DNA of 32,960 nucleotides from Vampirovibrio sp. Lineage in GTDB: Bacteria > Cyanobacteriota > Vampirovibrionia > Vampirovibrionales > Vampirovibrionaceae. The first letter of the stretch is position 1; each line of letters opens with the position of its first letter. This document shows positions 803 to 30,628 of this stretch, piece after piece. The notes below the pieces were generated by a model. The model saw only the letters and a program-made list of their open reading frames with translations, searched no databases and had not been told where the DNA came from. Location of the stretch: contig JAJQJM010000013.1 in assembly GCA_021323475.1 (NCBI GenBank), forward strand, positions 1-32,960, given 5' to 3'. A program made the position numbers and the translations under genes.

Positions 803-1554
803 GTTTCGTTCCCATCAAGAAAATCCAGAAACGGGATCCGGCCACCGGCGAGATGATCGAGCTGTACGCCGTGCCCTCCGTTTCCATTGCCACCCCGCAA
901 GGTCGCAAGCTGATTCCCAACCCCTCCGGCAACGAGGCCAACCTGTTCAACACCCTGGCAGAAGCGGAGGAAGCCATCCGCCGGGCCGGGTTCGATTATG
1001 AATTCGAGGGTAAAAAAACCTACCTGCTTGGTCAAGCCGCAGCCGCCGGGCAATCCAAGGCACGTTATAATGCTTCTTCCGTGGATCAGGCCGTTCCGCT
1101 ATTACTGGACATGCTGCAAGCGCGAGAAGCCAGCGTTGTGGCGAATGCCGCTTATGCGTTAGGGGCGTTAAAAGCCTTTGGAGCCATTGATCCGTTGGCC
1201 GAGCATTTGGGGCACGATGATCCGAGTGTCCGCAAAACGGTTGCCGAAGCCCTGGCCAAGTTTGGCATGCCCGCCCTGCCCCGTTTGCACGATGCCTTTG
1301 AGCAAGCCCGCGCCAGTAGCCATAAAAACGCGCCTTACATTCGCCTGACGGTGATGTTGTGCTTTTTGGAAATGCTGGACCAGGGTTTGGGCTTACCGCT
1401 GCGGGACCAGTTTTTGCCCCTGGCCGTAACCGCCCTGGCGGATGAAAGCTGGCTGGTTAAGTCGCAAGCCGCACTGGTCGTCGGTCGCACCGCGCAAATG
1501 CTGGACGAGGAACGTAAAAAAGCCGAACAGCAACGCCGGGGCCCCTCCTCCTGA
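799..1554 (+). CDS. HEAT-repeat protein of unknown role
   Basis: This 251-residue soluble protein has no signal peptide or membrane segment. Residues about 1-80 form a small, probably beta-rich N-terminal region. From about residue 90 onward, helical repeats of HEAT/PBS-lyase type appear (AVPLLLDMLQAREASVVANA, then AIDPLAEHLGHDDPSVRKTV, then ALPRLHDAFEQ), each with the typical Asp/Pro-Ser-Val-Arg turn. Such repeats usually mediate protein binding. The start codon overlaps the stop of the hydrate dehydratase gene by four bases, so the two are probably co-translated. The C-terminus is charged (EERKKAEQQRR). The specific function is unknown; a scaffold role is inference only. Confidence 0.75.
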   Translation: MSFVPIKKIQKRDPATGEMIELYAVPSVSIATPQGRKLIPNPSGNEANLFNTLAEAEEAIRRAGFDYEFEGKKTYLLGQAAAAGQSKARYNASSVDQAVPLLLDMLQAREASVVANAAYALGALKAFGAIDPLAEHLGHDDPSVRKTVAEALAKFGMPALPRLHDAFEQARASSHKNAPYIRLTVMLCFLEMLDQGLGLPLRDQFLPLAVTALADESWLVKSQAALVVGRTAQMLDEERKKAEQQRRGPSS

Positions 1555-2558: not shown

Positions 2559-3521
2559 ATGCGATACCGAATTCTAGGAAAAACCGGTTTTCAGGTTTCA
2601 GAGGTTGGCTTTGGCGGATGGGCCATTGGCGGAAATGCCTTTGGCGACAGTTACGGCGCCACCGATGACACGGCTTCCCTGACCGCGTTAAACCGAGCCT
2701 ACGAGCTGGGCTGCACTTTTTTCGATACCGCCGATGTTTACGGACATGGGCATGCGGAAACACTATTGGGCCAAGCCTTAAAAGGCTGGCAGCGAGACCG
2801 GATTTTCATTGCTACCGCAGGCGGGCAGGATTTTTTCGAGGAAACCCTAGCCAAAGCCGGAGGCGTCAAACCGAACTTTTCGGCCAGACACTTGCAAACC
2901 GCCGTGGACCGCAGCCTGAAACGCCTGGGTGTTGAGGCCATTGATCTGTACCAGCTTCATACCCCGCCGCTGGAGCTGATTCAGCATGGCCAAATCTTTG
3001 ATGTGTTACGCAACCTGAAAAGCCAGGGGAAAATCCGCTTCTACGGCATTGCGATTCACGATCCGCAGGAAGGCGTCCAGGCCATCAAGCTGGGGCAGGT
3101 GGATTGTGTGCAGGCCATCTATAACCTGTTTGACAAACGAATTGAAAACCAATTGCTGCAAACCTGCGCTGAAACGCAAACCGGGCTGATCGTTCGCGAA
3201 CCCTTGGCCCGCGGCTTTTTATCCGGCAAGTTTCAGGAAAACACCTCGTTTGAAAAAGGCGACAACCGGGCCATCTGGCCCAAGCCGCTGATTAACAAGC
3301 GCATTCAGGCCGCCGAAAAATTCAAACCGCTCATTCCGGAAGAATATAACCATTTGAGTCAACTGGCCATTGCCTATCCTCTCGCCAGCCCGGCGGTATC
3401 CACCGTCATTCCCGGCTGCAAGACGCCGGAGCAAGCCGAACGAAATATGGCCGTAGGCGCATTACCTCCTCTCACGCAGGATACGATGCAGGCAATAAAT
3501 CGGATTCAGGGGCTTTTATAA
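2559..3521 (+). CDS. Aldo/keto reductase-family protein lacking catalytic lysine
   Basis: This is a TIM-barrel protein of 320 residues, the normal length for the family. I chose the ATG at 2559 because it begins the conserved MRYRILGKTGFQVSEVGFGG strand; the longer frame from 2364 would run through the divergent cytochrome gene. The catalytic tetrad is only partly present: Asp56 (FFDTADVYG), Tyr61 and His134 (LYQLH) are there, but position 87 in IFIATAGG is Ala where IATKGG is expected. NADPH-binding features near the C-terminus (VIPGCKTPEQAERN) are intact, so the fold and cofactor binding are probably kept. The substrate is unknown. Loss of Lys would weaken ordinary carbonyl reduction, so a different reaction or a regulatory role is possible. 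The Shine-Dalgarno is weak. Confidence 0.88.
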   Translation: MRYRILGKTGFQVSEVGFGGWAIGGNAFGDSYGATDDTASLTALNRAYELGCTFFDTADVYGHGHAETLLGQALKGWQRDRIFIATAGGQDFFEETLAKAGGVKPNFSARHLQTAVDRSLKRLGVEAIDLYQLHTPPLELIQHGQIFDVLRNLKSQGKIRFYGIAIHDPQEGVQAIKLGQVDCVQAIYNLFDKRIENQLLQTCAETQTGLIVREPLARGFLSGKFQENTSFEKGDNRAIWPKPLINKRIQAAEKFKPLIPEEYNHLSQLAIAYPLASPAVSTVIPGCKTPEQAERNMAVGALPPLTQDTMQAINRIQGLL

Positions 3522-3576
3522 ATCGCATATAGAATACAATCCGGTTTCTGTTGAGATTTTCAGGAGATTTCCGCGA

Positions 3577-4206
3577 ATGGGTACAATTTCGCCACGTTTC
3601 GGGGCTGTTTATCGCCCTGTTGCACCGGTTAACCGGCCATTGCCTACTATACAAGACCCGTTACCGCTGGTGGCAAGACTGGGGCTGCAAACCAAAATGC
3701 TGATGGACGGCAATGTTCTGTATAATGAACCTTTGGTACAAAGCCTGGTAAATTGCAGAGAAATGGCCATTCCCGCATTAAAGACCCTGTTCCAGAGTAC
3801 CAATAACACGCCTGTCCTGCTGGAAGGGCTGTATGCGGCCGGCAAAATGGCAGAGGCGAAGGTCAACAACCTGGAGGAACTGTATCCTGCCCTCACCCGC
3901 TGGAACAGCCATCCCGATCCGACAATCCAGATGCATTTAGCCCGCTTTTACCGTAAAATCAACGAACCGAAAACCTTTGGGCCCATGCTGTCCACGGCAG
4001 TCAATTACGCCGTCAACATGTACCCGATGTCTTCGTCCTCTTCCTATAACGTAACTGAAGAGGTGGGAGCCACCCTGCTGGATCAGATTGCCCGGCGCAC
4101 CGCGCAGGAAACAGTCCGGCAATTGCTCCCTTTCATTCAGAACAAGCCGTTTCAGCCGATGCCACCCGTTTTTCTACCGAATAACAAGCCGAACCCCAAG
4201 CCTTAA
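3577..4206 (+). CDS. Uncharacterised helical protein
   Basis: This 209-residue protein belongs to no family I recognise. The ATG is preceded by AGGAG about ten bases upstream. The N-terminal 30 residues are Pro-rich and probably unstructured. Residues about 50-140 look like alternating helices with HEAT/ARM-like spacing (PALKTLFQ, VLLEGLYAAGKMAEAK, TIQMHLARFYRKI). A Ser-rich turn (YPMSSSSSYNV) follows, then a helix, then a Pro/Asn-rich tail (NNKPNPKP). There is no signal peptide or membrane segment. It sits between the aldo/keto reductase and the ROK kinase on the same strand, with small gaps, so co-transcription is plausible. Confidence 0.65.
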   Translation: MGTISPRFGAVYRPVAPVNRPLPTIQDPLPLVARLGLQTKMLMDGNVLYNEPLVQSLVNCREMAIPALKTLFQSTNNTPVLLEGLYAAGKMAEAKVNNLEELYPALTRWNSHPDPTIQMHLARFYRKINEPKTFGPMLSTAVNYAVNMYPMSSSSSYNVTEEVGATLLDQIARRTAQETVRQLLPFIQNKPFQPMPPVFLPNNKPNPKP

Positions 4207-4248
4207 TTAGAGAAAACCGAGAGCAAGAAAGAGAAGAGAGTAGTGCTA

Positions 4249-5271
4249 ATGAAAGACACAGCCATTACCGAAGCCAACCCCAGGCCGAACCATGCCCCGT
4301 CCAAAACCGGAATTACCAAACCCACCGTCGGAATCGACATTGGAGGCACTAAAATCAACGCCGCCGTGGTGGTGCCGGACAGCAAGCCGGGCGAAGAACA
4401 GTTTCAGTCGCTCATCAACGCGCCTACCCCTACGGATTCCGCCGTCTTCATGGATACACTGGTCACTATGGTGGACACCCTGAAGCAGCAGCATGACGTA
4501 GCCGCCGTCGGGATTTCCACAGCCGGGGTGGTGGACTCGATTCACGGGCGCATTCTGGGTTCTACCGGCAATATGCCGGCGCTGAAGAATCTCTGCAACC
4601 TGAAAGAATTACTGGAGGCCCGCATCCACCTGCCCGTCCATATGGAAAATGACGCCAACGCGGCCGCATACGGCGAATGGCGCAGTGGTGCCGCCAAAGG
4701 CGCGGAAAACATGTTCGCCATTACGCTGGGCACTGGCGTAGGCATGGGCATTGTGTTCAACGGCCAAATGTACCGAGGAACCCACTTTTACGCGGCGGAA
4801 GGCGGACACATCGCCATTTCTTACCACCGGGAGCGTAAATGCACCTGCGGCCGCTGGGATTGCTGGGAAGCCTTTGCCTCCGGCACCGGCCTGCAAAAAA
4901 CCGCCGCGATAGCCCTGGAGGCCGCTCCGGAAACTGCCAAAGCCGAGTTTCTGCAAAACTACTGCACCAACAACGAGGTGACCACTTATGCCGTCATCGC
5001 CGCTTGGAAAGACAACAACCACATCGGCGCCAAAATTATTGATCAATGGCACAACCATATCGCAGTCGGGCTGGGTAGCCTGATCAACGTGATGGATCCG
5101 GATATGATTGTGGTCGGCGGCGGTTTGGCTCAGTTCGTCAACTTCGAGTTGTTGAAGGAGCGCGCCCTGGAGCGCTCCATGAGTAATGACTTCCAGTTGG
5201 TCCCCGCCACATTGGGTAACCATGCGGGCATTGTGGGAGCCGCGTACCTTGCCTTGGAAACCTTAAGCTAA
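4249..5271 (+). CDS. ROK-family sugar kinase (glucokinase-like)
   Basis: This ATP-dependent hexose kinase is of the ROK type. Counting from the ATG at 4249, the phosphate-binding DIGGTK is at about 30-35, the catalytic ENDAN with Asp135 follows, GTGVG is at about 161-165, and the ROK zinc site is complete: EGGH (His187) and CTCGRWDC (Cys198, Cys200, Cys205). An in-frame GTG at 4243 is an alternative start only two codons earlier, and a purine-rich stretch (GAGAAGAGAG) lies upstream of both. Length, about 340 residues, is slightly long because of a Pro-rich N-terminal extension. Glucose is the likeliest substrate, but N-acetylglucosamine or mannose kinases share these motifs. The stop codon abuts the rsmA start with no gap (TAAATG), indicating an operon with rsmA and ispE. 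Confidence 0.88.
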   Translation: MKDTAITEANPRPNHAPSKTGITKPTVGIDIGGTKINAAVVVPDSKPGEEQFQSLINAPTPTDSAVFMDTLVTMVDTLKQQHDVAAVGISTAGVVDSIHGRILGSTGNMPALKNLCNLKELLEARIHLPVHMENDANAAAYGEWRSGAAKGAENMFAITLGTGVGMGIVFNGQMYRGTHFYAAEGGHIAISYHRERKCTCGRWDCWEAFASGTGLQKTAAIALEAAPETAKAEFLQNYCTNNEVTTYAVIAAWKDNNHIGAKIIDQWHNHIAVGLGSLINVMDPDMIVVGGGLAQFVNFELLKERALERSMSNDFQLVPATLGNHAGIVGAAYLALETLS

Positions 5272-11466: not shown

Positions 11467-13986
11467 CTAGAGCGCGGGAGCCAGCATGCCTTCGGAAATG
11501 AAGTGGTTCAGTTGCTTGGCCACTTCCGAGGGCTCCATTGCCCGACGGGCCACCCCGGTTTCCATGGCGGCCTTGGCCACCGCAGACGCCACCGCAGGCG
11601 GCACGTGGAAATCCAACGCGGAGGGAATAATCGTTCCGGCCTCTAGTTGCTCCTCGGTAATCAGTTCGGCAATGGCGTGGGCGGCGGCAATCTTCATATC
11701 GTCGTTAATTTCTCTGGCCCGCACATCCAGTGCGCCCCGGAAGATGCCCGGAAACGCCAGCGAGTTATTCACCTGGTTCGGGAAATCACTGCGTCCGGTC
11801 GCCATGACTTTAGCACCTGCCGCATAGGCTTCATCCGGCATAATTTCCGGAATGGGATTGGCTAAAGCAAAGATAATCGGGTCTTTCGCCATATTGCGCA
11901 CCATTTCCTGGTTTACCGTACCGGGAACCGACAGACCCAGGAACATATCCGCGCCACGCATCACGGTTTGCAGGTCACCACGTTCATCAGCCAGGTTGGT
12001 AATCTCGGCAATATCCCGTTTGAAGGGATTCATGCCTTTCTCGCGGCCTTTATGAATAACACCGGCCGTATCGCAGATAATAATATCCTTGGCACCCGCC
12101 TTCAGCAACAATTTAGAGACACTTAAGGCAGCAGCACCCGCGCCGTTCACCACAATCCGCAGATCGGACATCTGCTTATCCGCCACTTTAATCGCATTGA
12201 ACAGGGCGGCTAACACCACCACGGCGGTGCCATGCTGATCATCGTGGAACACGGGAATGTCCAGCTCCTCCGTCAAGCGCTTTTCAATCTCAAAGCAACG
12301 GGGAGCGGCAATATCCTCCAGGTTGATGCCGCCGAACACCGGGGCAATTTTCTTAACGGTCTCTACAATCTCATCGATCTCCTGGGTGCGCAGGCAAATG
12401 GGGAACGCTTCCACGCCACCGAAAGTTTTGAAGAGCACCGCCTTGCCTTCCATTACCGGCAAGCCCGCACCGGGACCGATATTGCCCAGGCCCAACACGG
12501 CGCTGCCATCCGTGACGATGGCAACCAGGTTGTTCTTCAGGGTCATATCGTAGGCCTTTTCCGGATTATCCCGAATCACTTCGCTGGGGCGGGCTGCTTC
12601 CGGCTGGGAATAGATGCAGTTGTAGATATAATTGTCCCGAATCGGCACGTAGGAGACGGTTTCAATCACCCCGTGGTAGCGCTTGTGATTGATCAGGGAG
12701 ATTTCATCGTTGGTTTTACCGGCCAGTTGCTCGGGCTCAATGTCCTCTACCCAGGCGTTGGAGCCTTCATACACGAAGTTCATGACCTTTTCTTCAATGC
12801 TGACAGGGTCCACGGCGACCTGGGCCACCTGGGTATCCATTGCCGCACCGGCCACCGCCTTGGCAATCTTGGCAGAAACCCGGTAATCCAAGGGCTCCGG
12901 CAGCACCACTTCCTGAGAAAGCTCATCGCCAGTCACCAAATCCGCCATGGCATGCGCCGCCGCGCACAGCATGGCATGGTTAATATCGGTGGCCCGCACA
13001 TCCAGCGCGCCCCGGAATACGCCCGGCAGAATCAGGGAGGAATTAATCTGGTTCGGTGCATTATTCAAGCTGGTGGCAACCACTTTGGCACCGGCCTCCT
13101 TGGCAGCGTGGGCAGAGATTTCCGGCTCCGGCAGGGCCAACGCAAAAATAATCGGATCGTGGGCCATCGTACGAATCATCTCTGGTGTCAGCACCCCGGA
13201 GGTGGAGAAACCAATGAACACGTCCGCACCGCACAGCATGAAGGCCAAATCGCCTTTTTTATCTTCCCGGTTGGTCAGGCGGGCCACTTCGGACTTGATG
13301 TAATTGAGGCCTTCAGTTCGCCGGTAATACAGCGCCCCATGACGATCCAGTACCTTCACATCGCCAACACCCACCTGCTTCAGCATTTTGGCCGTGGCAA
13401 TACCGGCGGCACCGGCCCCGTTGATTACGACAGAGATATTTTCCAGCTTTTTATCCACAATTTTCAGAGCGTTCAAAAGGGCTGCCAACACGGCAGTGGC
13501 GGAGCCATGCTGATCCGCATGCAGAATCGGCAGGGACACCGCCCGTTTTAAGCGCTCCGCAATGGCAAAACAGCGGGGGGACGATATATCTTCCAAGTGG
13601 AAGCCACCAAACGTGGGCGACAGGTAGCGGACAATTTCCACAAACTCGTCCACATCCTTGGTGTTAATAGCGATGGGGAAACCATCGATGCCCGCAAAGT
13701 TCTTATGGAAAACGCTTTTTGCTTCCAACATGGGCAGCGCGGCGTAAGGACCGACATCTCCCAAGCCGTAAACACTGGAACCATCCGTCACAATGGCAAC
13801 TGTGTTGCCCCGCATGGTGTAATCAAAGGATGCCAGGTGATCTTTCTCGATTTCAAGGCAGGGTTTGGCCACGCCCGGCGTGTATACCCAGCTAAGGGTC
13901 GCCGTATCCTTGATGGGGAGTTTGGGGGTAATGCCAATCAGGCCACGATGCTTGATTCTCAGGGAACATCCGTCCACAACGGTCAT
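11467..13986 (-). CDS. Tandem-duplicated malic enzyme (two fused copies)
   Basis: Malic enzyme oxidatively decarboxylates malate to pyruvate. This 839-residue protein holds two malic enzyme units, about 1-400 and 455-839, instead of one unit or the usual fusion to a phosphotransacetylase domain. Copy 1 keeps YTPGVAKP (Tyr35), the lysine of the EAK motif (Lys90), FHLEDI (Glu132-Asp133) and GAGAAG. It has HADQHG where HDDQHG is expected (Ala157), ALP for ANP (Leu285), and NS for the paired Asn (315-316). Copy 2 keeps Lys515, NLEDI (557-558), HDDQHG (581-586), ANP (Asn710) and NN (740-741), but the YTPGVA loop reads YSQPEAARP (Tyr459). An Asp after the second Rossmann strand (about 214 and 639) suggests NAD use. 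The ATG is preceded by AAGGAG. Copy 2 is probably the main catalytic unit. Confidence 0.93.
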   Translation of the reverse strand: MTVVDGCSLRIKHRGLIGITPKLPIKDTATLSWVYTPGVAKPCLEIEKDHLASFDYTMRGNTVAIVTDGSSVYGLGDVGPYAALPMLEAKSVFHKNFAGIDGFPIAINTKDVDEFVEIVRYLSPTFGGFHLEDISSPRCFAIAERLKRAVSLPILHADQHGSATAVLAALLNALKIVDKKLENISVVINGAGAAGIATAKMLKQVGVGDVKVLDRHGALYYRRTEGLNYIKSEVARLTNREDKKGDLAFMLCGADVFIGFSTSGVLTPEMIRTMAHDPIIFALALPEPEISAHAAKEAGAKVVATSLNNAPNQINSSLILPGVFRGALDVRATDINHAMLCAAAHAMADLVTGDELSQEVVLPEPLDYRVSAKIAKAVAGAAMDTQVAQVAVDPVSIEEKVMNFVYEGSNAWVEDIEPEQLAGKTNDEISLINHKRYHGVIETVSYVPIRDNYIYNCIYSQPEAARPSEVIRDNPEKAYDMTLKNNLVAIVTDGSAVLGLGNIGPGAGLPVMEGKAVLFKTFGGVEAFPICLRTQEIDEIVETVKKIAPVFGGINLEDIAAPRCFEIEKRLTEELDIPVFHDDQHGTAVVVLAALFNAIKVADKQMSDLRIVVNGAGAAALSVSKLLLKAGAKDIIICDTAGVIHKGREKGMNPFKRDIAEITNLADERGDLQTVMRGADMFLGLSVPGTVNQEMVRNMAKDPIIFALANPIPEIMPDEAYAAGAKVMATGRSDFPNQVNNSLAFPGIFRGALDVRAREINDDMKIAAAHAIAELITEEQLEAGTIIPSALDFHVPPAVASAVAKAAMETGVARRAMEPSEVAKQLNHFISEGMLAPAL

Positions 13987-14059: not shown

Positions 14060-14176
14060 CGGGTTTTCGCAGATTGGAAGCCGTTTGAATTCCGGTTAAA
14101 GGCCGCTTTTGCTCCAATTGCCTTTGTGCTTTGATAGGGCCAGTTCCATCATAAAAACAAGCACATGGAGGCCCCT

Positions 14177-15295
14177 ATGAGCACTTCCCATAAAATCGCG
14201 GTTTTACCTGGAGACGGCATCGGCCCGGAGATTATGGAGCAAGCCATTAAGGTGCTCAAGGCCTTCGAACAGAAGTTTAATGCTCGCTTCGAGCTGGAAG
14301 CCGCCAACATCGGTGGCGCGGGCATCGACAGCGACGGGGTTCCCCTGCCGGAAAAAACCCTGAAGCTGGCCCAGGAGTCCGATGCGGTGCTGATGGGTTC
14401 CGTGGGCGACTTTAAATATGACAACCTCGATCCCAAAATCCGACCGGAGCAAGGCTTACTGCAAATACGCAAGGCGCTGGGCCTGTATGCCAACCTGCGC
14501 CCGGTCAAAGGCTACAAGTGCCTGGAGCATGTCTCCACCCTGAAGCCGGAAGTGGTAACCGGCATTGACGTGATGGTGGTTCGGGAACTGACCGGCGGCA
14601 TTTACTTCGGCCAGCCCCGCGCTCGTGAAGGCTCCGGGACACAAGAAAAAGCATATGACACCTTGGTTTACACCCAGCCGGAAATTGAGCGCATTGCCCG
14701 TGTTGGTTTCGAGATGGCCTTGAGCCGCCGCCGGAAGCTAATGTCCGTGGATAAGGCCAACGTACTGGCCAGTTCCCAACTATGGCGGGACGTGGTAAAC
14801 GCCATCGCCAAGGACTACCCGGAAGTGGAGTTGTCTCATATGTACGTGGATAACGCGGCCATGCAGCTCATTCTGAACCCCAAGCAATTCGATGTCATCC
14901 TGACCGAGAATATGTTTGGCGATATTTTATCCGATGAAGCCAGCATGTTGACCGGCTCTTTGGGCATGCTACCCAGCGCCAGCCTGGGCGAGAAAAAACC
15001 GAACGGCAAGCGCAATGCCTTGTACGAACCCTCCCACGGTTCCGCGCCGCAATTTGCCGGGCAAAACAAGGTGAATCCCATTGCACAGATTCTATCGCTG
15101 GCCATGATGCTGGAATACAGCTTCGGCTACAAGCAGGAGGCCGCTCAAATCGACCAGGCCATTGAACAAGTGCTGAATGAGGGCTACCGCACCTTTGACG
15201 TTATGGGCGAAGATGCCACGCTGGTCGGCACCTCCGAGCTGGGTGATAAAATTGCCGCCGCCCTGCTGGAATTGCCCGCACCGATTCCAGCTTAA
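14177..15295 (+). CDS. leuB: 3-isopropylmalate dehydrogenase
   Basis: LeuB oxidatively decarboxylates 3-isopropylmalate in leucine synthesis. The beta-decarboxylating dehydrogenase hallmarks are present: [11 protein letters not shown] at the N-terminus, [20 protein letters not shown] (the LeuB-specific arginine helix), [12 protein letters not shown] with its catalytic Tyr, the catalytic Lys of SVDKANVL, and the metal-binding Asp of the [10 protein letters not shown] segment, followed by EPSHGSAP. The ATG at 14177 is used because GGAGG lies six bases upstream; an ATG at 14165 would overlap that site. Length (372 aa) is typical. No other leucine gene lies alongside. The gene is divergent from the malic enzyme, sharing a 190-base intergenic region. 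Confidence 0.93.
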
Positions 15296-15335
15296 GATGA
15301 TGCCAATTTAAGACGGTATTCAGGCAACACCCGGC

Positions 15336-16265
15336 TTAATCGAAGTCGTAGTCATCATCGGAGGAACCGTGGTGCCCGAAGATACGACTCCACCAGCCGC
15401 CGCCGCCATCATCGTCAGCATCTCCGGCATCCGAATCGGAATCCTCAGCGTCCGTATCCGAGTCCTCGTCTCCGCCATGCTTGTCGTCTGTGTCATGCGA
15501 ATGGCTCTTATCAGAATGATGCGTCTTGCTATCTCCGACATCCTCATGATGAGCGGAGTCCGCGTCCCCATCGTCCACGCTGTCGGAATCTTCACTCCGT
15601 TCCTGGTGTTTCGATTTCTCTGAGCTTTCATTGGTGCTCTCCGAGCCTTCTGCGGTGGAAGGTTCATCCTTCGATGTGGCCGGATGCTTTTTATCTAAAT
15701 CCGGCAGATCCGCATCCGAACCAGAAGCCTCTGTCTTATCGCTAGCCTGCTCAGGGTGCTTTTTATCCAGCTTATGCGCTATCAGGTTACCACCCACGTT
15801 GCCAATGATGTTACCGGCTGCGGAAATCCCCACATTAGCCGCCAGATCCTTTGTCCAATTACTGTTTCGGCTGGTTGATGGCTGTCTTTTCGCATTGCTG
15901 CCCGTTGCCTTGGTTGAGCTCTTTTGAGAAGAAGATTTCTCCTTCGCCGCCCCCTTTTTGGGAATTAAATCCGCAAAGGCCTTGCCCAGCTTCTGGAATT
16001 GAGAGAACAACGCATAGTAGAAATGCCGAATCGCCAGCGTAATCCGGGTCCATAGCTTGATTTTGCCGGATTTATTGATGCGCCCCTTGAACTCGTCCCT
16101 TGGCAGCTCGGCCACAATATCCGGATTGCCCAGCATCTTATATAACTGGTTCGCCGAGCAGGCCGCCGACCGTTTTCCGGTCGCTTCCGCAAGCGATTTC
16201 CTCTGTTTGTCGGGCAGATTGGCATACATGGACTCAGCAAACGAGGGGGAGGATACGGGGCTCAT
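15336..16265 (-). CDS. Charge-polarised protein with Ser/Asp/His-rich acidic tail
   Basis: I do not recognise this 309-residue protein. Residues 1-140 are basic and contain an aromatic helix (LWTRITLAIRHFYYALFSQF) followed by a Lys/Ser-rich stretch. Residues about 141-163 are a Gly/Ala-rich hydrophobic segment (VGISAAGNIIGNVGGNLIA) that could insert into or lie on a membrane. The motif LDKKHP occurs twice (166-171 and 190-195). From about 180 to the end the chain is an acidic, presumably disordered tail of Asp, Ser, Glu and His, interrupted near the C-terminus by GGGGWWSRIFGHHG and ending in DDDYDFD. Such a tail could bind Ca2+ or other metals or be phosphorylated. There is no cleavable signal. 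The start has AAGGAT upstream. The base composition may reflect repeat expansion of GAY/AGC codons. Confidence 0.7.
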   Translation of the reverse strand: MSPVSSPSFAESMYANLPDKQRKSLAEATGKRSAACSANQLYKMLGNPDIVAELPRDEFKGRINKSGKIKLWTRITLAIRHFYYALFSQFQKLGKAFADLIPKKGAAKEKSSSQKSSTKATGSNAKRQPSTSRNSNWTKDLAANVGISAAGNIIGNVGGNLIAHKLDKKHPEQASDKTEASGSDADLPDLDKKHPATSKDEPSTAEGSESTNESSEKSKHQERSEDSDSVDDGDADSAHHEDVGDSKTHHSDKSHSHDTDDKHGGDEDSDTDAEDSDSDAGDADDDGGGGWWSRIFGHHGSSDDDYDFD

Positions 16266-16438
16266 GAATTGAAATCCTTCTATGCATTCGTTAAGATGAG
16301 GGCCACGTTCCCGCGCCCCCAGATTGACCCAATTTATACAGGGATACGGGATTAAAAGCTGAAAAACTCTTTTTGTGCCTTTTCAGTGTTGCGGAATTGA
16401 ACCGGAATTCATTTTTTCAGTATAAGGAGAACTCTCTG

Positions 16439-16915
16439 ATGGAAAGAACATTTATCGCCCTGAAACCGGACGCCGTACAACGCGGTTACATCGGTGAAAT
16501 CATCACCCGTTTCGAGCGCAAAGGCTTCAAGCTGATCGGCTTGAAACTGATGCACGTTACCCCGGATATGGCTGGCGAACACTACGGCGAACACCGCGAA
16601 AAGCCCTTCTTCAAAGGCCTGGTGGACTTCATCACCTCCGGCCCCATTGTGGCAATGGCTTGGGAAGGCAACAACGTAGTGGAATCCGCGCGTAAAATGA
16701 TGGGCGCCACCAACCCGAAAGATTCCGCTCCCGGCACCATTCGTGGCGACTTTGCCGTGGATCTGGGCCGCAACATCATTCATGGTTCCGACAGCGTGGA
16801 AAGCGCCGAGCGTGAACTGAAGATCTTCTTCGGCACGAACGAGCTGCTGTCCGGCTGGAGCCGCACCACCGAAGGCTGGATATACGAGAACCCCAAAACC
16901 CCGGCCACCGTGTAG
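16439..16915 (+). CDS. ndk: Nucleoside diphosphate kinase
   Basis: Ndk equilibrates nucleoside triphosphate pools through a phosphohistidine intermediate. The start ATG at 16439 has AAGGAG seven bases upstream. Motifs: [15 protein letters not shown] at the N-terminus, and [15 protein letters not shown], which holds the catalytic histidine and family signature. Length is 158 aa, slightly longer than the usual 140-150 because of the C-terminus. The gene is divergent from the acidic-tail protein and ends in a strong terminator. Confidence 0.97.
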
Positions 16916-16942
16916 GTTCAATCAGGCGAATATCTTTATCGG

Positions 16943-16975
16943 CACCCGTGAGCAATCACGGGTGTTTGATTTTTT
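16943..16975 (+). terminator. Rho-independent terminator of ndk
   Basis: A nine-base-pair perfect stem (CACCCGTGA with TCACGGGTG, loop GCAA) is followed by TTTGATTTTTT. The T-run overlaps the stop codon of the convergent ABC ATPase gene. Confidence 0.88.
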
Positions 16976-17744
16976 AAGCTGTTTCAAAGATTTCCAAATA
17001 CCGGCGGGTGGTTTCTTGCTGCGCATGCCGCAAAATGTCGGATGGGCTGCCCTCTTCCACCACCTTACCACTATTGATGAACACCAGGCGATCCGCCATA
17101 TGCGCCACAAAGCGCAATTCATGGGTCACCATCACCAGCGTCATCCCCTGGGCCGCCACCTGCTCAATGACTGAAAGCACTTCCCGGCTCATGGGCGGGT
17201 CCAGCGCGCTGGTCGGCTCATCCAGCAGCAAAATATCCGGCTCCATCGCCAAGCTTCGAGCGATGGCCACCCGTTGCTTCTGCCCACCGGAAAGGTGTTC
17301 CGGGTACAGATTCGCCTTATCCGCAATGCCCACCTGTCCCAGTAATTGATGTGCCCGCTCCAGCGCTTGCGCTTTATGGACTTTCTTCACCCGTACCGGC
17401 CCCAGCATAACGTTTTCCAGTACGGTCAGGTGTGGAAACAGGTTAAACTGCTGGAATACCATGCCAATCCGCGAACGGAACCGGTTCCAGTCCAGCACCG
17501 AATCACTCAGGTTATTCCCGTTGACCACGATTTCACCGGCGTCGAACTGTTCCAAGCCATTGATACAGCGAAGCAAGGTGGTTTTTCCGCAGCCGGAAAA
17601 GCCCATCAAGGCGATTTTTTCACCCCGATGCACCGTTAAATCAATGCCATCCAGTATCTTTGCAGCGTCAAACCGTTTTGAAACCCCGGAAAACCGAATC
17701 ACAGCATCGGATGGGTCAATTGATTTTTCCGCAGGGCTGGGCAT
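16974..17744 (-). CDS. Amino-acid-type ABC transporter ATPase, without partner genes
   Basis: The Walker A motif (GFSGCGKTT), Q-loop (MVFQQFNLFPH), signature (LSGGQKQRVAIARSLA), Walker B (ILLLDEPTSALDP) and the switch His (VTHELRFV) are all present. The spacing and MVFQQFNLFPHLTVLENV are typical of polar amino acid importers (GlnQ/HisP group). I chose the ATG at 17744; a TTG at 17783 would lie inside the upstream gene. The start is only seven bases after the stop of the AMIN-like/TPR gene, so the two are probably co-translated. No permease or binding-protein gene is next to it, so either partners are elsewhere or it serves a different membrane complex. It ends within the ndk terminator. Confidence 0.92.
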   Translation of the reverse strand: MPSPAEKSIDPSDAVIRFSGVSKRFDAAKILDGIDLTVHRGEKIALMGFSGCGKTTLLRCINGLEQFDAGEIVVNGNNLSDSVLDWNRFRSRIGMVFQQFNLFPHLTVLENVMLGPVRVKKVHKAQALERAHQLLGQVGIADKANLYPEHLSGGQKQRVAIARSLAMEPDILLLDEPTSALDPPMSREVLSVIEQVAAQGMTLVMVTHELRFVAHMADRLVFINSGKVVEEGSPSDILRHAQQETTRRYLEIFETA

Positions 17745-28449: not shown

Positions 28450-28768
28450 AAAGAGTGGCTGAGAAGAATCCCTAATTCAACTCATGGATAAAATCTCAAT
28501 TTAATCCTGATAAAGATTATGCAAAGATTCGTCTTTTAAAAGGTCCCAAGTTTTTATAATGAGGGGATATCAGAGTCTTTTCGGCTTTGGAATTAAGATC
28601 TTATGAAGACTAGCCCTCATATTATTGGCAACGTGAAGTGGAGGTGATAGCATAAATCATCTCTCGAAGGTTGCTTTTTGTTTTGGTGGGTAAAAAGGAC
28701 TTTCAATCAATTAGGTAGGTTAAGGTAAGTCAAAATTGTTATTGAACCAAATAGGAGTTGAGTTAGAT
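28450..28768 (+). promoter_or_regulatory. Long structured leader of the SLH-porin gene
   Basis: This 319-base stretch has no credible gene. A perfect -10 TATAAT (28555-28560) with a weak -35 suggests a transcript start near 28567 and an untranslated leader of about 200 bases. Within it, GGAGGTGAT (28640-28648) is a nine-base match to the anti-Shine-Dalgarno, but no ATG, GTG or TTG follows at a usable distance. The same bases form an eight-pair hairpin with ATCATCTC (28656-28663; loop AGCATAA). The porin's own weaker GGAG (28754-28757) lies 11 bases before its ATG. No terminator for alaS is visible. Confidence 0.5.
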
Positions 28769-30628
28769 ATGACTTCAAGAAGAGTGACACCCTTGCTGCT
28801 CGCAGCAAGCATCTTCCTGACAGGTGCAACCGGTGCCTTCGTTGGTTCGATGACGTCCGCTCACGCTATTACCAGCGTGGATGAACTGACTGACGTAAAC
28901 CAGAATCACTGGGCTTACGAAGCTCTGCGCGATCTGGTTGAAAAGTACGACGTTATCGAAGGTTATCCTGATCACACCTTCCGCGGCGAGCGCAATGCAA
29001 CCCGTTGGGAATTGGCTGCCGCCCTCAATGCGTTGATCAAGTCCGTTGGTCGTGACTTGGCTCGCCTGGGCGCTGAAAAAGCCGACAAATCCGATCTGGA
29101 AACCCTGGCTAAATTGCAGGAAGAGTTCAAAAACGAACTCGCTGCTCTGCAAGCCCGTACCGAAGCGCTTGAATCCCGCGCCAGCGCGATTGAAGCCAAG
29201 AACGCCGAGCAAGATCAGCGTTTGAGCCTGCTGGAAAGAACCCAAATTCACGGCGATGCCAGCATCGGCGTACTGGGTGATTTGAACGGCCGCGGCACCC
29301 GCGATCAGTTCAGCGCTCCCGGCAGTGGCCGTGACGGTATTCTGAACGGCATTTCCGCTATCGGTCGTGTTCGTTTGACCATGGACATCCCGGTGAAGGA
29401 AGACAAAGAAGATTCCAAGATCGGCGCCGGTGAAATCCACACCCGTTTGATCGGTGCTTTCGGACGTCTCGCTCCGAACGGCGTTAACCAAGGTGGCGCT
29501 GGCCCAGCCAACCCATTCAACGGTTACTCCCGTATCGCTGGCGATGCTTCTCTGAACAACGAAGGTCTGAACGCAGCTACAGGTTTAGCCGGCGTTACCG
29601 GTGGCAGCAATACCCGTTCCACCCTGTACATTGAAGACATTCACTACCACCAGCACTTCAAAGCAGGTATTCCTCTGTTGACCGACTGGACCTTCGGCGC
29701 TGGCGCTAGTGACAACTGGCAAACCACCGGCGACCTGTACGTCGGTTCCATGCCGTGGCGCTATCTGTACGACAAGAGCCCGTACCGTGGTAACGAGCAA
29801 ACCCAGTTCCAGAACAACGCGTTCGTGAACACACCGGGTGTTGCCATCAACCAGAACTACCCGATGATCGCTTACCAATGGCACCAACAACTCGGTTCCG
29901 ACAGCCTGAGTGCTGACTTCACCACCGGTGTCGGTTCTATCAACGTGGGCGACATGATGGATGGTTTCAACCTGACCTATGAAGGTCGCTTGAACTATAA
30001 AGTGGCCGACCTGCCCGGTAACATCTACGCCGGTGGCTATAACATCTGGGGTATGGGTAACACCGTTAACTCCGCTACCTTGCTGGCTGGCCGTGTGAAC
30101 CGTTCCGGAACCGTCAGCAGAGCGTTCGGCGGCAGAGACAGCACCAATGCCCTGTACGCTGGCTGGAACCAGGAATGGTACAAAGGCATCGGCACCACCA
30201 TTAACTACATGTACAGCAGTGGTGGTGTTTGGAACTACGGTTACCTGACCAACAACCAAAACCTGGGTGTTAACTCTGCTACCGTGCGGGTTGCCCCTGG
30301 CGACTTCGACCCGGTTACTGTTGCAGGCCGTCAGTCCATCACCGGTGTGTTGAACATTCCGATGAGCGTATTCGGTATTCGCGAGAACGACGTATTCGGT
30401 ATCGGTTACTCTGTGATTCAACTGAGACAAGACCGTATCGGCGACAACTTCCCGCGCGCTACCCGTTTCCACCAAGCTTGGGAACAAACGGCTGAAGCTT
30501 ACTACAAGTGGGCTGTTAACGATGCCATCTCCATCATCCCGAGCGTACAAGTTATCTCCAATAGCTTGGGCGTTCGTGAAAACGGCATCAACACCGTTGT
30601 GGGTCTGCGCACCAGCTACTCTTTCTAG
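28769..30628 (+). CDS. SLH-domain outer-membrane porin (cyanobacterial type)
   Basis: I chose the ATG at 28769; the frame is open further back to 28736 (a TTG) but the signal peptide starts here. Residues 1-33 are a signal peptide with cleavage after AHA. An SLH domain follows at about 38-95 (NHWAYEALRDLVEKYDVIEG, YPDHTFRGERNATRWELAAAL), then a coiled coil (about 96-157). The rest, to residue 619, is a beta-barrel rich in Gly, Asn, Tyr and Thr, ending in phenylalanine (SYSF), the usual C-terminal signal for barrel assembly. SLH plus coiled coil plus barrel is the layout of major cyanobacterial outer-membrane proteins, in which the SLH domain holds pyruvylated peptidoglycan-linked polymer. Codon choice is more biased (GGT, CTG, AAC) than in neighbours, suggesting high expression. 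Confidence 0.92.
   Translation: MTSRRVTPLLLAASIFLTGATGAFVGSMTSAHAITSVDELTDVNQNHWAYEALRDLVEKYDVIEGYPDHTFRGERNATRWELAAALNALIKSVGRDLARLGAEKADKSDLETLAKLQEEFKNELAALQARTEALESRASAIEAKNAEQDQRLSLLERTQIHGDASIGVLGDLNGRGTRDQFSAPGSGRDGILNGISAIGRVRLTMDIPVKEDKEDSKIGAGEIHTRLIGAFGRLAPNGVNQGGAGPANPFNGYSRIAGDASLNNEGLNAATGLAGVTGGSNTRSTLYIEDIHYHQHFKAGIPLLTDWTFGAGASDNWQTTGDLYVGSMPWRYLYDKSPYRGNEQTQFQNNAFVNTPGVAINQNYPMIAYQWHQQLGSDSLSADFTTGVGSINVGDMMDGFNLTYEGRLNYKVADLPGNIYAGGYNIWGMGNTVNSATLLAGRVNRSGTVSRAFGGRDSTNALYAGWNQEWYKGIGTTINYMYSSGGVWNYGYLTNNQNLGVNSATVRVAPGDFDPVTVAGRQSITGVLNIPMSVFGIRENDVFGIGYSVIQLRQDRIGDNFPRATRFHQAWEQTAEAYYKWAVNDAISIIPSVQVISNSLGVRENGINTVVGLRTSYSF

What the first reader, a model, noticed from the sequence alone, without database searches (positions are those of the whole stretch)
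15336..16265. Charge-polarised protein with Ser/Asp/His acidic tail and twin LDKKHP motifs
Seen: a basic half, a Gly/Ala hydrophobic segment and a roughly 130-residue acidic tail containing several HH/HSH clusters, closed by GGGGWWSRIFGHHG and DDDYDFD. This does not match a family I know. The composition suggests metal or Ca2+ binding, phosphorylation or phase separation; membrane association is possible through the hydrophobic segment.
Basis: partly seen in the sequence, partly recalled or inferred. Interest (0 to 1): 0.5.

Follow-up and report, generated by a model that had tools for sequence, protein, structure and literature searches.

The report
Vampirovibrio-only protein with acidic tail

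Summary
The ORF is real, lies on the minus strand (309 aa) and has the described charge split. It belongs to a narrow orphan family: orthologues in 3 of the 4 other held genomes of the genus (one is Vampirovibrio chlorellavorus NCIMB 11383), always between leuB and ndk. No credible relative was found in the sampled order, class and phylum genomes, a pattern scan of genome contigs, viral contigs, phages, plasmids, Pfam, NCBIfam, PHROGs or PDB sequences. In another genus of the family leuB and ndk follow each other with 52 bp between them, so the gene looks like a gain within the genus. The basic N-domain (~105 residues) is under purifying selection (dN/dS 0.10-0.14). The tail varies in length and sequence, but stays acidic and ends in a Gly/aromatic island in all four. 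His clusters and twin LDKKHP occur in this species only; His metal binding is not a family trait, and the hydrophobic segment is weak for a membrane span. Best guess: an adaptor whose basic domain binds an anionic partner and whose acidic tail regulates or docks, like SSB or HMGB1 tails. A prey-directed role is not excluded, but VirB4 was found in only 2 of 4 carriers.

The parts
15336..16265 (-). CDS of the 309-aa charge-polarised protein; convergent with leuB, divergent from ndk
   Evidence: orthologues; selection
16266..16279 (-). Shine-Dalgarno-like leader AAGGATTTCAATTC directly before the ATG, 13 of 14 bases the same in all four orthologues
16292..16299 (-). Octamer TCATCTTA, at the same distance from the ATG in all four; role unknown
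15951..16265 (-). Basic N-domain, residues 1-105 (pI 10), predicted helical, the most conserved part; ends in a long cationic, aromatic helix whose amphipathic end (86-103) is kept in all four
15858..15950 (-). Basic Ser/Lys-rich linker, residues 106-136
15759..15857 (-). Gly/Ala hydrophobic segment, low-confidence helix 137-169, weak for a transmembrane span
15408..15758 (-). Acidic tail, residues 170-286, low model confidence (probably disordered); length and sequence vary among orthologues
15753..15770 (-). first LDKKHP (residues 166-171), not in the three orthologues
15681..15698 (-). second LDKKHP (residues 190-195), not in the three orthologues
15366..15407 (-). C-terminal Gly/aromatic island GGGGWWSRIFGHHG (residues 287-300); counterparts GGGGLFGWLGGLFGG (two orthologues) and GGGWFGWPWGG (V. 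chlorellavorus)
14165..15295 (+). leuB (3-isopropylmalate dehydrogenase; name recalled from the sequence, no family scan run), conserved neighbour
16439..16915 (+). ndk (nucleoside diphosphate kinase; name recalled from the sequence, no family scan run), conserved neighbour

Best explanation
A genus-restricted orphan protein, probably cytosolic, that works as a two-part adaptor. SHOWN: a conserved gene under purifying selection; a basic N-domain that evolves more slowly than the rest; a fast-changing tail that keeps its strong negative charge and always closes with a Gly-flanked aromatic cluster; the leuB-ndk location in all four carriers. INFERRED: the basic domain, with its cationic amphipathic helix, binds an anionic surface (nucleic acid, or the inner face of the membrane); the acidic disordered tail lies over that surface as a reversible competitor, and its aromatic tip docks onto a partner protein or back onto the protein itself, as acidic tails do in SSB or HMGB1 (recalled). 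The His clusters and twin LDKKHP motifs are species-level decoration of a tolerant tail.
For: Orthologues in 3 of 4 other genus genomes at the same site. N-domain dN/dS 0.10-0.14 against 0.32-0.43 for linker plus tail in the same three pairs. Acidic fraction of the tail 0.29-0.32 in 4 of 4 while its length from residue 161 runs from 87 to 149. 4 to 6 hydrophobic or aromatic residues within the last 25 in 4 of 4, against 2 to 7 in the 62 to 124 tail residues before that. Predicted helices with pLDDT 73-84 over residues 11-90, and means of 34-51 after residue 100. No N-terminal hydrophobic stretch of the signal-peptide kind is visible (no predictor was run).
Against: No binding partner, fold match or genomic link shows what the N-domain binds. 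Residues 91-100 of the model have pLDDT 53, and the N-domain folded alone, V. chlorellavorus sequence first, gave only 56. The best PDB fold matches of the full model are insignificant (Foldseek best E 2.5; VIA best Z 3.9). Acidity plus an aromatic tip would also fit export, surface or membrane roles.
Confidence: 0.33

Rival explanations
1. It is delivered to or displayed towards the algal prey: a Vampirovibrio-specific effector or attachment-pad protein, which would explain its restriction to a genus known for predation and its quick change.
For: Restricted to the genus in what was searched; changes faster than ndk (N-domain dN/dS 0.10-0.14 against 0.03-0.06 in the three close pairs); Soo et al. 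2015 (PMC4451040, passages seen) report an attachment pad of unknown composition and propose a conjugative T4SS with protein effectors.
Against: VirB4 (PF03135, E 1e-10 or better) was found in only 2 of the 4 gene carriers (G002 and G004; not G000 or G003, both about 95% complete). No signal peptide is apparent by eye. The extreme C-terminus is not conserved (DYDFD here, GGGD in the others).
Confidence: 0.2
2. Peripheral membrane protein: the cationic amphipathic end of the N-domain helix, the Gly/Ala segment 137-169 and the C-terminal Gly/aromatic island bind the inner leaflet.
For: Residues 86-103 have a hydrophobic moment of 0.60-0.64 in 4 of 4, and the highest in each protein starts at residue 86-89; the Gly/aromatic island is conserved.
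Against: Hydrophobic peak at most 1.17 on the Kyte-Doolittle scale; the C-terminal island sits in acidic sequence, unfavourable at an anionic membrane (inference).
Confidence: 0.2
3. Metal- or Ca2+-buffering protein: the acidic and His-rich tail binds divalent ions.
For: 47 D+E and 13 His in residues 161-309.
Against: Tail His 0, 2 and 2 in the orthologues; His clustering not beyond chance; no tandem GGxGxD motifs, a single one in one of four proteins.
Confidence: 0.1
4. Spurious or decaying ORF without function.
For: Orphan, restricted to one genus in what was searched, and not found in one genus member (G001).
Against: Same frame, start site, leader and location in 4 genomes; dN/dS well below 1 in the N-domain.
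Confidence: 0.03

Closest known systems
[quoted passage not shown] an SSB tail paper, PMC4137731, was seen only as a listing with the start of its abstract)
   Same: Folded N-part, flexible linker, acidic C-terminal tail with hydrophobic residues at the tip.
   Different: No SSB match in Pfam; N-part predicted helical, not an OB fold; tail far longer and Gly/Ser/Asp-rich.
HMGB1-type basic-domain plus acidic-tail proteins (recall)
   Same: Strong charge split that would allow the tail to compete for the basic surface.
   Different: Eukaryotic family (recall); no HMG-box match in Pfam.
PopZ-type polar organisers (recall)
   Same: Helical part plus acidic disordered part, no enzyme signature.
   Different: Order of parts differs (recall); no Pfam or NCBIfam match.

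Membership tests
Any family held in Pfam-A, NCBIfam, PHROGs, or any PDB sequence | Profile or sequence match at the family's threshold | tested here: not met
   best E 0.15, far under the curated cut-off; none up to E 1
SSB | SSB / OB-fold DNA-binding domain | tested here: not met
   No SSB profile match; N-domain predicted helical
SSB | Acidic C-terminal tail whose hydrophobic tip binds partner proteins | not testable with these tools
   Acidic tail and aromatic island present; binding needs an experiment
RTX / type I secreted Ca2+-binding proteins | Tandem GGxGxDxxx nonapeptides | tested here: not met
   0, 0, 0 and 1 GGxGxD in the four proteins, none in tandem
T4SS effector | A T4SS in every carrier genome | tested here: not met
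   PF03135 in 2 of 4 carriers; the drafts are incomplete, so a missed locus is possible
T4SS effector | Translocation into prey | not testable with these tools
   Needs an experiment
BEN-domain DNA-binding proteins | BEN fold | tested here: inconclusive
   BEN chains make up 5 of the 50 rows listed, at Z 2.8-3.6, under any trust level; no Pfam match
PopZ | PopZ-type oligomerisation domain | tested here: inconclusive
   No Pfam or NCBIfam match, but no direct comparison was made

The most novel reading that the evidence does not exclude
A new protein family, gained between leuB and ndk in predatory Vampirovibrio, whose basic domain and acidic tail with a Gly/aromatic (FG-like) tip act on the algal prey or build the attachment pad of unknown composition.
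Probability: 0.1. Interest if true: 0.65.

Novelty: new member of a known kind. Interest (0 to 1): 0.27.

Why it matters
Vampirovibrio chlorellavorus is a predatory relative of cyanobacteria whose attachment pad is of unknown composition (PMC4451040, passages seen). A gene confined to this genus in what was searched, kept under selection and sitting between two core genes, is a sensible candidate for genus-specific biology.

Tried and rejected
Chance ORF: rejected by conservation, leader and dN/dS. His metal site: not conserved. Transmembrane anchor: weak. Homologues outside the genus: the phylum sample gave G179 and the class sample gave G179, G547 and G024 at E 0.001-0.003, each with stop codons inside the match; I treat them as chance. 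Paralogues in the own genome: none for the whole protein, the N-domain or the tail alone. A remnant in G001, the genus member without the gene: leuB and ndk lie about 32 kb apart there; no ORF of 80 aa or more with a strongly acidic end was found in the span, and I saw no resemblance in the 1-kb gap after leuB (by eye). Positional counterparts: the ORF between leuB and ndk in G007 and the acidic-tailed ORF beside leuB in G005 show no relation by hhalign (E 0.24 and 0.25, probability under 1%). Fold searches gave nothing convincing. A paper search for charge-polarised bacterial tails and a second Vampirovibrio search gave nothing useful; both seen as listings only. The 66-paper Vampirovibrio list was seen for 30 entries. 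RNA families: none in 15000-17000. The promoter scan listed no site for this strand upstream of the gene, and no terminator is evident after it. A first script stopped part-way after the window protein; searches did the rest. In one search the ndk rows that involve the window were one codon out of register and are not used.

Full report
The ORF at 15336-16265 is on the minus strand and encodes 309 residues. Residues 1-160 carry 26 K+R and 10 D+E; residues 161-309 carry 14 K+R and 47 D+E. The gene stands alone: it converges on leuB (ends at 15295) and diverges from ndk (starts at 16439).

The window is one whole contig of a 3.34-Mb draft genome. Orthologues appear in 4 of 39 related genomes searched, the own genome counted: the window genome and three of the four other members of its genus. 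Two of these are named in genome contigs: Vampirovibrio chlorellavorus NCIMB 11383 and a Vampirovibrio metagenome assembly; that the window belongs to the genus rests on the kinship column. An N-domain profile finds 4 of 18 genomes of the order, all of the same genus, 2 of 386 in a phylum sample and 7 of 382 in a class sample. The hits outside the genus (G179 in both samples, G547 and G024 in the class sample) have stop codons inside and E-values of 0.001-0.003, so I count them as chance. A pattern scan of genome contigs gave 71 candidate stretches, 2 of which encode a relative; viral contigs gave 133 candidate stretches and none; the V. chlorellavorus N-domain had no match in phage or plasmid records. 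Pfam, NCBIfam, PHROGs and PDB sequences gave nothing of note.

In all four carriers the gene lies between leuB and ndk. I read the stretch after leuB in ten genomes without the gene. In G006, another genus of the family, ndk follows leuB after 52 bp. In G007 a 138-aa unrelated ORF lies between them. In the other eight ndk was not seen next to leuB: G001, where the two are about 32 kb apart on one contig, and G005, G008, G009, G010, G011, G012 and G013 (an ndk motif search of the flanks held). No similar ORF was found in the G001 span. So the neighbourhood is not fixed in the order, but where leuB and ndk sit together outside the genus the gene is missing. The simplest reading is a gain at this site within the genus, followed by loss or rearrangement in G001; gain after G001 split off is equally possible, and I built no tree.

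The gene is under selection. Its leader AAGGATTTCAATTC is the same in 13 of 14 bases in all four genomes. Among G002, G003 and G004 the N-domain has dN/dS 0.10-0.14, linker plus tail 0.32-0.43, and ndk 0.03-0.06. Comparisons with the window itself are saturated or nearly so at silent sites. Window N-domain identity to the other three is 46-51%, while its ndk is 84% identical to that of G002 and its leuB 86-89% identical to the three.

The tail is 87 to 149 residues long counted from residue 161, with 0.29-0.32 acidic residues in all four, so charge is kept and sequence is not. The last 25 residues hold 4 to 6 hydrophobic or aromatic residues in each protein, against 2 to 7 in the 62 to 124 tail residues before them. 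They form a cluster behind a Gly run: GGGGWWSRIFG here, GGGGLFGWLGGLFGG in two orthologues, GGGWFGWPWGG in V. chlorellavorus. In a 400-kb background sample of 348 ORFs the V. chlorellavorus orthologue is first in tail acidity and the only one with such an end; in charge polarisation it is second in absolute terms, fifth per residue, and first of the 296 ORFs of 150 aa or more.

The model of the whole protein, made with three sequences, shows helices at 9-16, 19-31, 34-45, 48-52, 56-62 and 71-100. Mean pLDDT is 73-84 over residues 11-90, 53 over 91-100 and 34-51 beyond; a helix 137-169 is of low confidence. The N-domain alone, with the V. chlorellavorus sequence first, gave pLDDT 56 and nearly the same helices, the long one broken at 88-89. 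No solved fold matches convincingly; with so thin an alignment this is not evidence of a new fold. The end of the long helix (86-103) is strongly amphipathic in all four (moment 0.60-0.64).

What it does is inferred. A basic helical domain plus an acidic disordered tail with an aromatic tip is the plan of adaptor proteins in which the tail competes for the basic surface and the tip docks a partner. I rate this first, at about one in three. Peripheral membrane binding is a fair rival because of the conserved amphipathic stretch. A prey-directed role is attractive because V. chlorellavorus preys on algae, and Soo et al. 2015 (PMC4451040; passages seen) report an attachment pad of unknown composition and propose a T4SS. 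Against it, VirB4 was found in only G002 and G004 of the four carriers, and no export signal is evident by eye. Metal binding through His is unlikely as the family's role.

Verdict: a genuine, conserved orphan family, absent from the family libraries searched and confined to one genus in what I could search; the striking local motifs are not family traits; function open. Modest interest.

Noticed in passing
window 11467-13986 (-): 839-aa ORF with two stretches each of the malic enzyme N-terminal and NAD-binding domains (PF00390, PF03949): it reads as two malic-enzyme halves fused in tandem.
   Followed up: partly
L033 (G005) 3066-3623 (-): In another genus of the family a 185-aa acidic-tailed ORF converges on leuB at the same place and orientation, with no detected relation and no Pfam match. 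Coincidence or positional replacement is open.
   Followed up: partly
L033 (G005) 3829-4890 (-): 353-aa Tyr/Gly/Asn-rich repeat ORF (YDPYGYDPYG...) next to it.
   Followed up: no
L031 (G001) 3039-4880 (-): 613-aa ankyrin-repeat protein (Ank_2, E 4e-52) about 1 kb after leuB in the genus member that lacks the gene.
   Followed up: partly
L055 (G007) 1006-1422 (-): A different 138-aa ORF sits between leuB and ndk in G007, so this junction carries unrelated genes in different genera.
   Followed up: partly
window 16292-16299 (-): TCATCTTA, at the same distance upstream of the start in all four genomes; role unknown.
   Followed up: no
window 28736-30628 (+): SLH plus OprB porin, an arrangement I recall from cyanobacteria.
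   Followed up: no
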